From the NCBI GenBank assembly GCA_021807965.1, contig JAKBCI010000108.1, positions 1 through 6,172 of the forward strand: 6,172 nt of DNA, read 5' to 3'. This document shows positions 387 to 5,730 of the stretch, piece after piece (positions within the stretch are counted from its first letter, which is position 1; every line of letters starts with the position of its first letter). This DNA is from Actinomycetes bacterium. Lineage in GTDB: Bacteria; Actinomycetota; Acidimicrobiia; Acidimicrobiales; RAAP-2. The position numbers and the translations under genes are program-made. The notes under the pieces were generated by a model. That model ran no database searches. It was given only the letters and a program-made list of their open reading frames with translations, and was not told where the DNA came from.

Positions 387-2150
387 ATGAACGCCTTGAA
401 GCACGCTCACCACGACCGGTACAAGTGGATCGCCTTGACGAACACGACGCTTGGCATCTTCATGGCCACGATCAATGGTTCGATTATTTTGATCTCGCTG
501 CCGGCGATCTTTCGAGGCGTCGGGATCAATCCCTTGTCACCGGGCAACGTTGGTTACCTCTTGTGGCTCCTCCAGGGTTACCTCCTCGTTACGGCGGTTC
601 TCGTGATCAGCCTCGGTCGATTGGGCGACATCAAAGGACGCGTGCGGATATACAACCTTGGTTTCGCCGTGTTCTCGGGAGCGTCGGCACTGCTAGCACT
701 GGATCCATTCCATAACGGATCCGGTGCGTTGTGGTTGGTGTTGTGGCGACTGGTTCAAGGAGTGGGCGGTGCGATGCTCTTCGCGAATTCGAGCGCGATC
801 ATCGTCGACGCGTTTCCACCGGAACAGCGCGGATTCGCGATGGGCATCAATCAAGTGGCCGCTATCGGCGGTTCGTTCGTCGGTCTGATTTTGGGAGGAC
901 TGTTATCCATTGGCGACTGGCGCCTCGTGTTCTGGGTCTCGGTGCCGGTTGGCCTCATCGGCACGGTCTGGGGCTACGTGAGCCTTCGTGACAATGGCGT
1001 TCGGGTGAACGCGAAAATTGACTGGTGGGGTAACGGTACGTTCGCCATCGGCCTCACGTCACTGCTGGTGGCCATCGTGTACGGCATCCAGCCGTACGGG
1101 GCTGACTCGATGGGCTGGACCTCGCCGACGGTGCTGAGCGCGTTCGCGATCAGCGTCGTGTTTCTCGCGGCCTTCTTGGTCATAGAGTCCCGCGTGGCGT
1201 CACCAATGTTCAATCTCAAGCTCTTCCGTATTCGGGCGTTCTTTACCGGGAGCGTTGCTGGCCTTCTCGCGGCGATCGCTCGCGGCGGGCTCCAGTTCAT
1301 GCTGATCATCTGGCTGCAGGGTATCTGGCTCCCGCTGCACGGCTACAGCTACGCGGCCACTCCGTTATGGGCGGGCATCTACCTGCTGCCGCTCACGATC
1401 GGTTTTCTGGTCGCGGGACCAATCTCGGGTTACCTGTCGGACCGTCACGGTGCGCGAATCCTTTCTACGACTGGTCTATTGGTGTTTGGGCTGAGTTTCG
1501 TCGGATTGCTCATTCTTTCGACTGACTTCGCGTACTGGCAGTTCGCGCTCCTGGTGGCTCTCAATGGATTGGGAGGTGGCATGTTCTCGGCGCCCAACTC
1601 GACGGCCATCATGAACAGCGTGGCGGCGAACGAACGGGGCGGCGCCGCCGGGATTCAAGCGGCGTTCATGAACTCGGGCATGGTGGTGTCTATCGGCGTG
1701 TTCTTCTCACTTATGATCGTGGGGCTCACCAATACGCTTCCGGGGAGCTTGTACCGAGGATTGACAACGCACGGCGTTGCCGCCTCGCAGGCCCGCGCTG
1801 TTGCGAACCTCCCCGCGGTGGGCAGCCTCTTCTCCTCGTTCTTGGGTTTGAATCCGCTTAAGAGCTTGCTCGGCAGCCAAAGCGCCGCGCACGTCTCCCA
1901 GGCGCAGTGGACTGCGTTGACGGGGAAGCACTTCTTCCCCAGTTTGATCTTGACGCCGTTTCACCACGGACTGGTGATTGTCTTCTCATTGGCTATTTCG
2001 ATGGCGGTCATTGGTGCGGTGTTCTCGTCGTTGCGCGGCGAGCGCTACGTCAACCGAGAGTTGTCGATGCAGGAGCACGTCGACGATATCTCGTTGGCCG
2101 GGGGCGCTGTCCCCGGCGAGGTTGCCCTCGAGAGTGACGTGGTCCGATGA
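387..2150 (+). CDS. MFS drug-export-type transporter (DHA2-like, 14-helix class)
   Basis: The 587-residue hydrophobic protein carries the Major Facilitator signatures of proton-driven multidrug exporters. Motif A is [11 protein letters not shown] at residues 77-87 (loop 2-3). A motif B-like [11 protein letters not shown] begins at 120, with R121 and Q124-G125. A motif C-like [10 protein letters not shown] lies at 162-171, the antiporter motif of helix 5. The length and number of hydrophobic segments fit the 14-helix EmrB/QacA (DHA2) group. The first helix reads [13 protein letters not shown] (27-39) instead of the common D-x-T-I-V-N-V-A-L-P, typical of a separate actinobacterial-style subgroup. 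A long polar, Ala/Ser-rich stretch around 450-530 precedes the last helix. A GGAGG at 369-373 precedes the ATG by 13 nt, which is longish, but no other in-frame start fits. The stop overlaps the MarR gene, so an inducer of that regulator is probably a substrate. The substrate itself is unknown. Confidence 0.9.
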
Positions 2151-2587
2151 GCGTGGACGTCAACGTCAGCGCGACTGACGCCGCCCGATTGAACTTGATC
2201 GTCAGTCGACTGATGCGGACGATCCGCCAGCACGCGGCCGCCGGGCTCTCACCGTCGCAGGTTTCCGCACTGGTGACCGTGGACGAACGTGGACCGCTTC
2301 GCATCAGCGCCCTGGCGAGTCTGGAGTCGCTCGGGGCACCGGCGGCTACGCGGGTGGTAGCGACACTCGAGGAGTTGGGGCTCGTGTCACGCAGCTGTGA
2401 CCCCCTCGATCGACGGGCCTCACTGATCGCCGTGACGAGCGACGGTGTCAAAACGCTGCGGACGCTGCGTCACGAGCGTACGCTCGGGCTCGACGCGCAG
2501 CTGGAGACGCTCACGCCCGGCGAACGGCGCGACCTGATTCGCGCACTACCAGTACTGGAGAAAATCTCGAACGGCGCCACTCGATAA
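2147..2587 (+). CDS. MarR-family winged-helix transcriptional regulator
   Basis: The 146-residue protein has the MarR layout. An N-terminal dimer helix is followed by a helix beginning LSPSQVSAL (34-42), a recognition helix around [17 protein letters not shown] (64-80), the wing [16 protein letters not shown] starting at residue 85 with its D-x-x-D-R-R signature, and a C-terminal dimer helix. MarR proteins bind palindromic operators as dimers and release them on binding phenolic or drug-like ligands, or on cysteine oxidation. The ATG overlaps the exporter stop (ATGA), so the two genes are translationally coupled. The likely target is the palindrome at 346-363 upstream of the exporter. Cys84, at the base of the wing, is the only cysteine; a redox role is possible but not shown. 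Confidence 0.9.
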
Positions 2588-2632: not shown

Positions 2633-3364
2633 ATGTTCGACGAGCAACTGACGGATATAGGGCAGTGTTGGCGTGACGTGGCGGACGTCCTGGCGGCGGG
2701 AATCGACCGATTGGTCTTGTACGGTCCGCCGGGCACTGGTAAGACGTACGCCGCGCTGCACTTAGGCGAACACGGAGGTGTGGCCGAGCGTCTGGTCTGC
2801 ACCGAGGACTTAACCACCGGTGAGATTACCGGCACGTGGATTCCGTCGGGTGACGGGACGTGGCGATGGCGCGAGGGACCGGCTATCCGCGCGTGGACTG
2901 CGCGCGGTGAACGTGGTGGCCGACTAGTGATCGACGAGGTCGATCGAGCGTCGGGCGATGCCTTGAGTACCCTGCTGGCAGTGACCGACACGACCGAGTC
3001 GGCTAGGTGGCGCAACCCAGAAACCGGTGCGTGGGTGGCGCCCGGCCCCGAGTTCAGCGTCGTCATGACGACGAACTTGGAGGAACTCGACGAGCTACCG
3101 TCGGCACTGCGGGATCGATTTGCGGTGGCGGTTCGCATCGACCGGCCCCATCCGAACGCCGTGGCGCGCTTGAGCGACGACCTTCAGGCACCGGCGCTAG
3201 CTGGATCACTCGGCGAAGCGTCTCGACGCGTATCGCTGCGCAGCTTCTACGCGTTTGATCGACTTCGCGATCGGTACGGTTCGCCACGGGCGGCAGAACT
3301 GGTGTTCGGTGGCGACCGGGCGAACGCCATACTCGACGCGCTCAGCGTGGCGGCGCTGCGGTGA
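2633..3364 (+). CDS. MoxR/CbbQ-like AAA+ ATPase
   Basis: The 243-residue protein is a single AAA+ module of the dynein-related AAA_5 / MoxR type. Walker A is GPPGTGKT (31-38), Walker B is LVIDEVDRA (98-106), sensor 1 is MTTN with N148, and LRDRF (159-163) supplies the probable arginine finger region. Between the Walker motifs, TGEITGTWIPSGDGTW (62-77) then REGPAIRAW (80-88) is the region that in CbbQ, NorQ and MoxR precedes the Walker B strand. These ATPases form hexameric rings and remodel or activate a partner protein, usually carrying a VWA domain. The partner here should be the next gene, which starts inside this stop codon (GTGA). It is slightly short for the family, with a compact C-terminal lid. 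It begins 45 bp after the marR-type gene; no clear promoter is seen in that gap, so read-through from the exporter operon is possible. Confidence 0.87.
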   Translation: MFDEQLTDIGQCWRDVADVLAAGIDRLVLYGPPGTGKTYAALHLGEHGGVAERLVCTEDLTTGEITGTWIPSGDGTWRWREGPAIRAWTARGERGGRLVIDEVDRASGDALSTLLAVTDTTESARWRNPETGAWVAPGPEFSVVMTTNLEELDELPSALRDRFAVAVRIDRPHPNAVARLSDDLQAPALAGSLGEASRRVSLRSFYAFDRLRDRYGSPRAAELVFGGDRANAILDALSVAALR

Positions 3365-4713
3365 GTCCAGCGCCCGTCTTTCCGGAATTGGTGACCGGCC
3401 GGGCCGACGGTTTCATTCCGTCGGCGTGGCGCATCGAGCGCGGATCAACGTGGCGCGGTGACGCGAGCTGCGACCTGAGCGGTCGCATTCTGCGGGTGCC
3501 GTGGGAGACCGACGAGCGCGCACGAGTCGTGCGGGCGCACGAGCTGGTGCACGTGCGCGTCAGCCCACATCGTCGGGACTGGGGAACGAGCATTGCCGAC
3601 GTGTCCTACCGGGCTCTCGAGTGTGCCGAGGAGATGCGCGTCAACACAATTTTGGCACGGCTTGGTTTCGCGGTCGACCAGTTACGCGACGGGAGCGAGC
3701 GCCTCGGTGGCGAGCGTCTGGCCACGAGCGGCGACTGGTCCGAGGCGGTCTGCTTCCTCCTGGCGGTCATCGGCACCGGCGCGGAGCGGGACTTCGTGCG
3801 CGGCGTGCGCCGAGGCGACCCCAGCTGGGCGCCAGCGCTACGCGCCGTAGCGTCGCGCGCGCGCGCGATTGTTCGGTCCGCAACGGCCGATGAGCTTGGA
3901 GCGACGACGGTGAACGCCGACGGGTGGCCCGTCGGCTACGACGCGTTCAGCATTCCCCTGGCTCGTCTCGTTACCTCCGTTCGAGACGCTCGGATTCCTC
4001 GGGACCCTGAGGAGCTGCGTCGCTTTCGTCGGGCCCTGTTGCCCGGTGGTCGTCGACCACCGAGTGGACACTTCGCCGAATTGCACTTCGAACCTACGTC
4101 GTTGCGTCACCGGCCGCGCTCCGCTGGTGTGCGCCGTGTTCGCCCGTCGGTAAGTGGTTCGGTGATGCGATTCCCGAGTCGCCTGTTGACCGATGATCAG
4201 CGACGCGCTTTCGCCTCGCGCTCGCAGCGTCACGGCGGCGTGGTGGTCATCGATCAGTCGGGTTCGATGGACATCGAGCGCGAGCAACTGGAAGCCCTCG
4301 TGCGCCAGGCACCGGATTCGGTGGTGGTGGGCTATAGCCACCGGCCGGGGGATACCGGTACGCAACCCAACGCGTGGGTGCTCGCTCAGCGCGGTGGCGT
4401 CGTGGTCGAACCGCCGAGTGGCAACGTCGGGAATGGCGTAGACGGCCCGATCCTGCGGTGGGCGATTCATCGTCGGCGAGCGGGTGAACCACTGATTTGG
4501 GTCACTGACGGTCAGGTGACTGATTCGGCAGATCACCCTGACGAAGCGTTGGCGCGCGAATGCGCGCAACTCGTACGTTCGCACGGCATCATCATGGTGC
4601 GATCGATCAACGACGTTGCGGCGGTGTTGCGGCAACGACGACGGCCGTCGCCACGTGACGCGCAATTCGGTCGCGTGGGGCGGGCTCTAGCCACGCTCTC
4701 GACTCGGGTCTAA
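3361..4713 (+). CDS. HExxH putative metallopeptidase region fused to a VWA-like domain
   Basis: The 450-residue protein has no signal peptide or membrane segment. Its N-terminal part holds HELVH (60-64), an HExxH zinc-binding motif, followed by ALECAEEMRVN (85-95), whose glutamates could give the third zinc ligand. Its C-terminal part is von Willebrand factor A-like: a hydrophobic strand, DQSGSM (298-303, the D-x-S-x-S metal-ion site), and WVTDGQ with D383 as the distal acidic residue. The expected middle threonine is not obvious; the matching loop reads GNVGNGVDGP. The layout resembles DUF2201-type proteins, described as a putative metallopeptidase domain with a VWA-like domain, but that assignment is from memory. 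The GTG start overlaps the ATPase stop, giving tight coupling and implying an ATPase-VWA pair of MoxR type. A basic, Arg/Pro-rich linker lies at about 220-275. Substrate and process are unknown. Confidence 0.8.
   Translation: MSPAPVFPELVTGRADGFIPSAWRIERGSTWRGDASCDLSGRILRVPWETDERARVVRAHELVHVRVSPHRRDWGTSIADVSYRALECAEEMRVNTILARLGFAVDQLRDGSERLGGERLATSGDWSEAVCFLLAVIGTGAERDFVRGVRRGDPSWAPALRAVASRARAIVRSATADELGATTVNADGWPVGYDAFSIPLARLVTSVRDARIPRDPEELRRFRRALLPGGRRPPSGHFAELHFEPTSLRHRPRSAGVRRVRPSVSGSVMRFPSRLLTDDQRRAFASRSQRHGGVVVIDQSGSMDIEREQLEALVRQAPDSVVVGYSHRPGDTGTQPNAWVLAQRGGVVVEPPSGNVGNGVDGPILRWAIHRRRAGEPLIWVTDGQVTDSADHPDEALARECAQLVRSHGIIMVRSINDVAAVLRQRRRPSPRDAQFGRVGRALATLSTRV
3854..3867. repeat. (CG)7 dinucleotide tract inside the VWA gene
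   Basis: Fourteen bases of pure alternating CG encode part of SRARAI in the segment between the HExxH and VWA regions. Such tracts can adopt Z-form DNA and can slip during replication; a one-unit change would shift the frame before the VWA domain. At this GC content it may be incidental. Confidence 0.6.
4044..4062. repeat. Perfect 9-bp inverted repeat with 1-nt spacer in the VWA gene
   Basis: CGGTGGTCG-T-CGACCACCG is perfectly symmetric and encodes the Gly-Arg-Arg-Pro-Pro linker before the VWA domain. It could be a protein binding site or an mRNA hairpin, or it may simply follow from GGT/CGT/CGA/CCA codons. Confidence 0.5.
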
Positions 4714-4741
4714 CCGTTCATCAGGAAGGACACCTCCCCAC

Positions 4742-4770
4742 TTGATAGACGAACACCTGTTCGCTAGAAT
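4742..4770 (+). promoter_or_regulatory. Sigma-70-type promoter of the LysM-nrdR operon
   Basis: TTGATA (4742-4747) and TAGAAT (4765-4770) each match the housekeeping consensus at five of six bases, with an exact 17-bp spacer. Transcription would start near 4777, within the second LexA box. LexA box 1 fills the spacer and box 2 covers the start point, so repressor on either site should block polymerase. The leader is only about 27 nt. Confidence 0.8.
4750..4763. promoter_or_regulatory. LexA (SOS) box 1
   Basis: CGAACACCTGTTCG matches the actinobacterial/Gram-positive SOS box CGAAC-N4-GTTCG exactly. It lies between the -35 and -10 elements. Confidence 0.9.
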
Positions 4771-4771
4771 A

Positions 4772-4785
4772 CGAACAGGTGTTCG
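4772..4785. promoter_or_regulatory. LexA (SOS) box 2
   Basis: CGAACAGGTGTTCG is the reverse complement of box 1 and again a full match to CGAAC-N4-GTTCG. Its centre is 22 bp from that of box 1, about two helical turns, so two LexA dimers would sit on nearly the same DNA face over the promoter. Confidence 0.9.
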
Positions 4786-4791
4786 TCTATC

Positions 4792-4797
4792 AAGGAG
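4792..4797 (+). promoter_or_regulatory. Ribosome binding site of the LysM gene, partly in the repeat arm
   Basis: AAGGAG lies 6 nt before ATG 4804, which fixes the start. Its first three bases are the last bases of the right repeat arm, so a hairpin in a read-through transcript would partly hide it. The transcript from the SOS promoter lacks the left arm and leaves the site free. Confidence 0.8.
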
Positions 4798-4803
4798 TTC
4801 GAG

Positions 4804-5229
4804 ATGTCCGCACTCGCCGAAGTTGCCGTAGACGTGGCTCCGTGTGCGCCAAGGCAGCTCCGCTTGGTCCGCTCGCCAGCGACCGTGTGGCGAACGGGAA
4901 CAACGCTCGCGGCGCGGCGCATGGTCCGTCAACGGCGCCGGCGGTGGCGGCGACGGGTACTGATCGTGTGTGGTGTCATTATTGGTGGTGGCGTGTTGTC
5001 GTGGCCGGGACACGCGCTTGGTGGCACCACGGGGACCGGATTGCCTACGGACCTCGCGACGGGGACGAGCGTGGCGTCGGGCATGGTCTACGTCGTACAA
5101 GAGGGTGACACGATTGGATCCATCGCACGACTTGCGAATCCGGTGGATCCGCCCCTGGCACGCCGACTGCTCGTTCGCGAGCTTCGCTCATCAGTGGTGG
5201 TGCCCGGCGAGCACGTCCTTATACCATAA
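4804..5229 (+). CDS. SOS-inducible LysM membrane protein, ChiZ/DivS/YneA-like cell-division inhibitor
   Basis: The 141-residue protein has three parts. The N-terminal cytoplasmic region (1-51) is disordered-looking and ends in a very basic run, RQRRRRWRRR (42-51); 14 arginines lie between 17 and 51. One membrane segment follows (about 52-68). A Gly/Thr-rich linker leads to a C-terminal LysM peptidoglycan-binding domain (about 95-141) with VYVVQEGDTIGSIA at its start and VPGEHVLIP at its end. This is the build of mycobacterial ChiZ (Rv2719c), C. glutamicum DivS and B. subtilis YneA, SOS-induced proteins that delay septation after DNA damage. The double LexA box promoter directly upstream supports the same role. 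nrdR follows after 15 bp, as in mycobacteria. Sequence similarity among these proteins is low beyond LysM, so the call rests on architecture, promoter and neighbours. Confidence 0.85.
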   Translation: MSALAEVAVDVAPCAPRQLRLVRSPATVWRTGTTLAARRMVRQRRRRWRRRVLIVCGVIIGGGVLSWPGHALGGTTGTGLPTDLATGTSVASGMVYVVQEGDTIGSIARLANPVDPPLARRLLVRELRSSVVVPGEHVLIP

Positions 5230-5231
5230 TC

Positions 5232-5237
5232 AAAAGG
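5232..5237 (+). promoter_or_regulatory. Ribosome binding site favouring the upstream GTG start of nrdR
   Basis: AAAAGG lies 7 nt before GTG 5245. It is 22 nt from the ATG at 5260, where most NrdR proteins would begin (MRCPYC), and no good site precedes that ATG. Confidence 0.5.
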
Positions 5238-5244
5238 TGTTTAC

Positions 5245-5730
5245 GTGTATCGTGGCGTAATGCGGTGCCCCTACTGTTCGGCGGACGACGATCGCGTGGT
5301 CGATTCGCGTCTCGCCGAGGATGGCGTGGCCATACGACGCCGACGCGAGTGCGCCGCCTGTGGGCAGCGCTATACGACCTTTGAACGCATCGAAGAGGTG
5401 GGCTTCTTCGTGGTGAAGCGCTCCGGTGACCGAGAGCCGTTCGTTCGCGCGAAGATTCTTACGGGGATCCGCGCGGCGTGCAAGAACCGTCCGGTCAACG
5501 AGTCGGTGATGGAGTCCATCGCGACCACCGTGGAAGAGTCGATGCGGCTCCTCAATCGTGATGTCTCGAGCGAGGAGGTCGGCCGGTCGGCGTTGGACGC
5601 ACTGCGACCGATTGACGACGTGGCCTACGTGCGCTTCGCGTCGGTCTACAAGGGGTTCGAGGGCACCGAGGACTTTGCGCGCGAGATCGGCATGCTCGTG
5701 AAGTCGACGGCGCCTAAACTCCGTAGCTAG
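5245..5730 (+). CDS. nrdR: Transcriptional repressor NrdR
   Basis: NrdR is an ATP/dATP-sensing repressor of ribonucleotide reductase genes. The N-terminal zinc ribbon is intact: CPYC (C8, C11) and CAAC (C36, C39), then GQRYTTFER (40-48). The ATP-cone domain follows, beginning near FFVVKRSGDREPF and running to about residue 144, including the nucleotide-binding KR pair. Length (161 residues from GTG 5245, or 156 from ATG 5260) is normal. The GTG is preferred because of its ribosome binding site, although it adds five residues before the usual MRCPYC beginning. It lies 15 bp after the LysM gene and probably shares the SOS promoter. No ribonucleotide reductase gene and no evident NrdR-box pair is in the window. 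Confidence 0.96.
   Translation: MYRGVMRCPYCSADDDRVVDSRLAEDGVAIRRRRECAACGQRYTTFERIEEVGFFVVKRSGDREPFVRAKILTGIRAACKNRPVNESVMESIATTVEESMRLLNRDVSSEEVGRSALDALRPIDDVAYVRFASVYKGFEGTEDFAREIGMLVKSTAPKLRS

What the first reader, a model, noticed from the sequence alone, without database searches (positions are those of the whole stretch)
4741..4794. Perfect 54-bp palindromic SOS promoter with two LexA boxes
Two complete LexA boxes, exact reverse complements of each other, bracket a TAGAAT -10, and the whole 23-bp arms match perfectly. The box centres are 22 bp apart (about two turns), which would suit cooperative binding and very tight repression. A perfect repeat longer than the two 14-bp boxes suggests a recent inverted duplication or selection on the whole structure rather than on single operators.
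Basis: partly seen in the sequence, partly recalled or inferred. Interest (0 to 1): 0.7.

Follow-up and report, generated by a model that had tools for sequence, protein, structure and literature searches.

The report
Two-site DNA-damage promoter
This is a DNA-damage-response switch with two repressor-binding sites in front of a probable cell-division brake gene; the two-site design is old and ordinary in this bacterial family, and only the extra-long mirror symmetry seen here is unusual.

Summary
In detail: two 23-nt complementary arms (4741-4763, 4772-4794) around an 8-nt loop, each with an actinobacterial-type LexA box, plus -35 TTGATA and -10 TAGAAT. The promoter precedes a gene for a LysM-like protein, then nrdR. 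In relatives the same box stands at lexA, recA, ruvC and an SRAP gene, so LexA is the likely repressor. The box pair is not recent: 156 of 172 genomes of the family carry it, and 85 of 124 distinct promoters keep the layout (-35, box 1 in the spacer, -10, box 2 near the start). Spacing runs 22-26 and 28-36, so a fixed two-turn phasing is not supported. Full symmetry beyond the boxes occurs in 2 of 124 (window, L002) and is absent from L001 and L003-L005; a kinship-aware control shows little general pull towards symmetry. The mirror-strand promoter it creates is not conserved. Best reading: a LexA-repressed promoter of a ChiZ/DivS/YneA-like SOS division inhibitor plus nrdR, as known from the M. 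tuberculosis lexA/Rv2719c region, with a lineage-specific palindrome. LexA binding and damage induction are untested.

The parts
4741..4763 (+). left arm of the inverted repeat
4772..4794 (+). right arm of the inverted repeat
4764..4771 (+). 8-nt loop between the arms, holds the -10
4742..4747 (+). -35 TTGATA
   Evidence: TTG within 11 nt upstream of box 1 in 120 of 124 promoters
4750..4763 (+). LexA box 1, CGAACACCTGTTCG, inside the promoter spacer
   Evidence: conserved in relatives
4765..4770 (+). -10 TAGAAT
   Evidence: geometry conserved in 85 of 124
4772..4785 (+). LexA box 2, CGAACAGGTGTTCG, over the expected transcription start (about 4777, inferred)
   Evidence: conserved in relatives
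4766..4793 (-). mirror-strand promoter-like site TTGATA-16-TATTCT, a by-product of the symmetry
   Evidence: not conserved
4792..4797 (+). ribosome-binding stretch AAGGAG, first three bases inside the right arm
   Evidence: sequence
4804..5229 (+). 141-aa protein: long helix 35-66 (likely transmembrane, not tested) then LysM-like domain; probable SOS division inhibitor (ChiZ/DivS/YneA-like)
5245..5730 (+). nrdR, 15 nt after the LysM gene, probably on the same transcript (inferred)

Best explanation
It is the LexA-repressed promoter of an SOS unit: a LysM-like membrane protein that probably halts cell division, and nrdR. One LexA dimer sits in the spacer between -35 and -10, a second over the transcription start, so RNA polymerase is kept off until both are gone; RecA-stimulated cleavage of LexA after DNA damage opens it. 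Two boxes on one short promoter would give low leak and late induction, fitting a growth-stopping product. The pair is old: in six distant relatives it lies in the shared lexA/LysM divergent region; in nearer relatives lexA is several kb away with, as a rule, one box of its own, so the genes probably parted and the pair stayed with the LysM gene. The extra arm symmetry here is a local addition with no demonstrated function. Shown: anatomy, conservation, the same box at lexA/recA/ruvC/SRAP of relatives. Inferred: LexA binding, damage induction, division arrest, co-transcription of nrdR, the direction of the lexA move.
For: Two-box pattern in 10 of 10, 156 of 172 (147 with one site, 9 with two) and 50 of 50 genomes picked from those; reversed pattern in 0 of 10, 2 of 172, 0 of 50. 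Of 80 nrdR loci, 72 have the pair within 1100 nt upstream, 5 do not, 3 hold too little sequence. A promoter of at least 8 of 12 matches at the fixed place in 85 of 124, against a mean of 5.6 and a maximum of 13 in 50 rounds of shuffled flanks. Same box at lexA and at recA, ruvC and SRAP genes. LysM: E 0.0097 for the window protein, above cut-off in 2 of 7 proteins scanned (P0046, P0072); model with a strand-helix-helix-strand C-terminus whose top PDB matches are LysM domains. lexA lies divergently beside the same boxes in 6 of 30 genomes examined.
Against: No binding or expression data. LysM is below Pfam's cut-off in the window protein and not listed at all for P0068; model pTM is 0.37 and no PDB match reaches E 0.001, best 0.042. 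No genome is held for the window, so its own lexA and recA were not seen. 5 of 80 loci and 16 of 172 genomes lack the exact pair; L066, L078, L079 and L080 have single-mismatch boxes, and bins are incomplete.
Confidence: 0.85

Rival explanations
1. Origin of the outer arms by quasipalindrome correction: a polymerase switched template at the imperfect repeat and copied one arm onto the other, so the -35 side was copied into the leader. (This concerns origin and can hold beside the best explanation.)
For: Window (TTGATAGAC / GTCTATCAAGG) and L002 (TTGCTAGAC / GTCTAGCAAGG) differ by one base pair that changed on both sides. Tree: window with L001 (support 0.857), then L002-L005, so either both arms changed together or symmetry arose twice. 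In 46 sister pairs, changes of left and right box centres are associated (odds ratio 5, p 0.016). Against relatives at tree distance 0.1-0.4, outer matches are 2.93 within against 2.66 across loci, higher within in 56 and lower in 34 of 91. The mutation type is documented in E. coli (PMC7202029, abstract and start of introduction seen).
Against: Against near relatives (distance up to 0.2, 85 loci) the excess nearly vanishes: outer 2.99 against 2.86 of 9, higher in 35 and lower in 34; centre 3.37 against 3.30 of 4; without window and L002 outer 2.84 against 2.77 (83 loci). One clear two-sided change only.
Confidence: 0.2
2. The repeat acts as RNA: read-through from the vWA-like gene folds into a hairpin that hides the ribosome-binding stretch, while the SOS transcript, starting inside box 2, leaves it open.
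For: Read-through RNA of the window folds at -54.8 kcal/mol (z -7.9) and the expected SOS transcript is weakly folded (z +1.8). The upstream vWA-like gene was found in 52 of 60 loci given, in the same direction in all 52.
Against: Predicted unpaired share of the ribosome-binding stretch in the window is 0.45 in read-through and 0.54 in the SOS transcript; over 91 loci the read-through mean is 0.39, as with swapped left flanks, 0.40. Eight loci do show read-through below 0.5 with SOS transcript above 0.7; the window is not among them.
Confidence: 0.06
3. A two-way promoter: LexA controls a sense transcript and an antisense transcript into the vWA-like gene from one symmetrical site.
For: Mirror-strand promoter-like site, 9 of 12; L002 has one of 8 of 12.
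Against: Mirror promoters of at least 8 of 12 in 8 of 124, shuffled flanks give a mean of 5.0; L003, L004 and L005 have none and L001 scores 6.
Confidence: 0.08
4. The boxes bind another repressor with a GAAC-N4-GTTC site.
For: LexA was not tested directly.
Against: One such box lies 33-42 nt upstream of the lexA match in 23 of 30 genomes, and recA, ruvC and SRAP genes have it.
Confidence: 0.03

Closest known systems
Mycobacterium tuberculosis lexA / Rv2719c (chiZ) region with several SOS boxes
   Same: Several LexA boxes serve the LysM gene's operon while lexA itself answers to one box (PMC8151990, passages seen; it cites Dullaghan 2002, not read). ChiZ is a damage-induced LysM protein that lowers division (PMC3989709, passages seen). 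That Rv2718c is nrdR is recalled.
   Different: There four boxes share one divergent region; here the LysM gene has two boxes inside its own promoter and lexA lies several kb away in the three near relatives measured.
Corynebacterium glutamicum divS and Bacillus subtilis yneA
   Same: SOS-induced division suppressors near lexA; YneA is a transmembrane LysM protein (PMC3989709, passages seen).
   Different: DivS has no significant homology to YneA by the same source; no sequence comparison with either was made here.
Colicin operons with two overlapping SOS boxes
   Same: Two LexA dimers guard a harmful product, with no detectable basal expression (PMC2994835, passages seen).
   Different: Colicin boxes overlap and are of the E. 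coli CTG-N10-CAG type; here they are apart and bracket the -10.

Membership tests
LexA-repressed SOS promoter (actinobacterial type) | box of type CGAAC-N4-GTTCG | tested here: met
   Streptomyces consensus tCGAAC-N4-GNNCGa seen in a passage of PMC9380542
LexA-repressed SOS promoter (actinobacterial type) | box overlaps the promoter | tested here: met
   (consensus match, no mapped start site)
LexA-repressed SOS promoter (actinobacterial type) | same box at core SOS genes of the same group | tested here: met
   (relatives, not the window's own genome)
LexA-repressed SOS promoter (actinobacterial type) | LexA binds and damage induces | not testable with these tools
   needs bench work
ChiZ/DivS/YneA-type SOS division inhibitor | membrane helix followed by LysM domain (ChiZ, YneA) | tested here: inconclusive
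   LysM below cut-off in the window protein, above in P0046 and P0072; LysM-like fold in the model; helix 35-66 modelled, membrane insertion not tested
ChiZ/DivS/YneA-type SOS division inhibitor | gene lies near lexA | tested here: inconclusive
   lexA is not in the window; about 6, 10 and 8 kb from the pair in G001, G005, G007; directly divergent in 6 of 30 genomes, all distant
ChiZ/DivS/YneA-type SOS division inhibitor | lowers division | not testable with these tools
   needs bench work

The most novel reading that the evidence does not exclude
In the window's lineage template switching has turned an old two-box SOS promoter into a near-perfect mirror that also fires antisense into the upstream AAA/vWA-like genes during SOS, both directions gated by the same two LexA dimers.
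Probability: 0.06. Interest if true: 0.5.

Novelty: new member of a known kind. Interest (0 to 1): 0.3.

Why it matters
It documents a conserved two-operator SOS promoter, usually one per genome, across a family of actinobacteria known mostly from assembled environmental bins (Acidimicrobiaceae or Acidimicrobiales by many record titles), tied to a probable division brake and to nrdR. The comparison suggests that a shared lexA/division-inhibitor region was split, with both boxes staying on the inhibitor side. It also shows that long symmetry around operators can be a local accident and need not be a selected structure.

Tried and rejected
Read-through RNA hairpin hiding the ribosome-binding stretch: looked good on the window's fold, failed on accessibility and on the swapped-flank control (one row gave an undefined value for the SOS transcript, so no mean of that is quoted).

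General homogenisation of the two boxes: a plain shuffle favours it (51 of 93 exact complements against 26.9), but ignores kinship; with near relatives as control the excess nearly vanishes, with more distant ones a small excess of outer matches remains. The sister-pair test is weakly positive.

Fixed helical phasing: not supported by spacing. Mirror promoter: not conserved. One search stopped with an error at L062 and was redone.

Rows dropped: one search was given the window and L001-L215 and kept records with an nrdR match and a pair within 1000 nt (166), collapsed by sequence to 124. Box-centre tests and searches use the 93 with spacing up to 26; one search kept 91 of them. One search used 30 of the 42 lexA matches (those given loci). 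One search used 60 of the 80 loci. One search used 45 of the 80 loci. One search listed only part of its matches; the tally line covers all 172. Of the family searches on box-bearing genes, RecA and RuvC were each tested on one protein; the other copies were named because their printed sequences are nearly the same. Of 11 box regions fetched, those without a clear gene were not pursued.

Paper searches. One search (LexA, Acidimicrobi, SOS) gave 2 papers, which by title and start of abstract do not treat this promoter; nothing wider is claimed about what is in print.

Full report
OBSERVATION. The inverted repeat is real: 23-nt arms at 4741-4763 and 4772-4794, 8 nt apart, fully complementary. 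Each arm holds a LexA-type box (4750-4763, 4772-4785), centres 22 bp apart. Between them is TAGAAT, and TTGATA at 4742-4747 gives a 17-bp spacer; the mirror strand has TTGATA-16-TATTCT. Downstream, 4804-5229 encodes a 141-aa protein and 5245-5730 encodes NrdR.

WHAT THE DOWNSTREAM GENE IS. Pfam LysM matches the window protein at E 0.0097, below cut-off; of 7 proteins of the family scanned, P0046 and P0072 are above it and P0068 has no LysM match. A model from 43 aligned relatives has a long helix 35-66 and a C-terminal strand-helix-helix-strand unit, mean pLDDT 74.5, pTM 0.37. Its top seven PDB matches are LysM domains or a protein bearing them; the best has probability 1.00 but E only 0.042. 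Damage-induced LysM proteins that lower division are known: ChiZ (Rv2719c) and YneA (PMC3989709, passages).

CONSERVATION. 80 loci were found with the window's NrdR. 72 of 80 have two boxes within 1100 nt upstream; 5 (L051, L066, L078, L079, L080) do not; 3 hold too little sequence. L066 has one perfect and one single-mismatch box, and L078-L080 have single-mismatch boxes. In L051 the LysM gene lies about 3.6 kb from nrdR; a pair is seen on a contig of the same length in G155, which I take to be the same contig. In whole genomes the pair occurs at one site in 10 of 10, in 156 of 172 of the family (147 with one site, 9 with two; reversed pattern in 2) and in 50 of 50 chosen from those. Phylum-wide a 14-bp, wider-gap version is in 71 of 296; what those sites precede was not checked.

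LEXA LINK. lexA was found in 42 of 45 genomes. Of 30 lexA loci examined, 23 have one box 33-42 nt upstream of the lexA match, one (L094) has two, and six (L081-L086) share the two-box region divergently with lexA, two or three boxes in all. In G001, G005 and G007 lexA is about 6, 10 and 8 kb from the pair. A single box also stands at recA of G001, G002 and G005, at ruvC of G002 and G005 (overlapping its start) and at an SRAP gene of G001 (families confirmed for one RecA, one RuvC and the SRAP protein). The lexA box mostly has centre AACT (17 of the 23), while the pairs of these genomes mostly have ACCT and AGGT, so box centres differ by promoter. Other boxes were not all followed.

PROMOTER GEOMETRY. 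Over 124 distinct promoters, TTG stands within 11 nt upstream of box 1 in 120, and a promoter of at least 8 of 12 matches is at that place in 85, against a mean of 5.6 (maximum 13) with shuffled flanks. Box 2 lies 22-26 bp from box 1 in 93 and 28-36 in 31. Spacing that spans nearly half a turn argues against a fixed face-to-face arrangement, without excluding cooperation.

THE EXTRA SYMMETRY. Beyond the 14-bp boxes all nine positions match only in the window and L002, 2 of 124; the next best is 7 (L030). The unbroken outer run is 10 and 11 there and at most 4 elsewhere (counting the first base, which belongs to the box). L001, the closest relative (93% NrdR identity), and L003-L005 lack it. 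The tree puts window with L001, then L002-L005. The two full palindromes differ by one base pair changed on both sides. That may be common ancestry with losses, or correction by template switching (PMC7202029, abstract and start of introduction). With near relatives as control there is almost no excess of complementarity within loci; with relatives at distance 0.1-0.4 outer matches are 2.93 against 2.66. The -35 CTTG facing CAAG at the ribosome-binding stretch supplies four of the nine matches.

KNOWN KIND. In M. tuberculosis the lexA transcript answers to one SOS box and the other three, with a PafBC site, act on the operon that the paper's text prints as Rv2019c-Rv2017c and a figure title as rv2719c (PMC8151990, passages). 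That is the same logic as here. The window is therefore taken as a new member of a known arrangement, with the LysM gene parted from lexA.

VERDICT. Confidence 0.85 in a LexA-repressed two-operator promoter; interest 0.3.

Noticed in passing
window 2633-4713: An AAA ATPase gene (AAA_5) overlaps a 450-aa gene without Pfam match that carries HELVH and DQSGSM stretches (vWA-like metal-site look, by eye, label recalled). Both were found upstream of the LysM gene in 46 of 60 loci given.
   Followed up: partly
window 387-2587: MFS efflux-like gene with an overlapping MarR regulator, seen in the same place in L001, L002, L005, L046, L048, L049, L052, L056 and L060 of the 60 loci given.
   Followed up: no
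window 4804-5730: nrdR probably shares the SOS transcript; why damage should raise a repressor of ribonucleotide reductase genes is unclear.
   Followed up: no
L051 4153-8635: LysM gene and nrdR are about 3.6 kb apart, so the two can be uncoupled.
   Followed up: no
L136, L138, L139, L141: These distant family members have two overlapping pair matches, that is three LexA boxes in a row.
   Followed up: no
L098 (lexA locus of G021): Here the single lexA box has the centre ACCT, as in the pair, instead of AACT.
   Followed up: no
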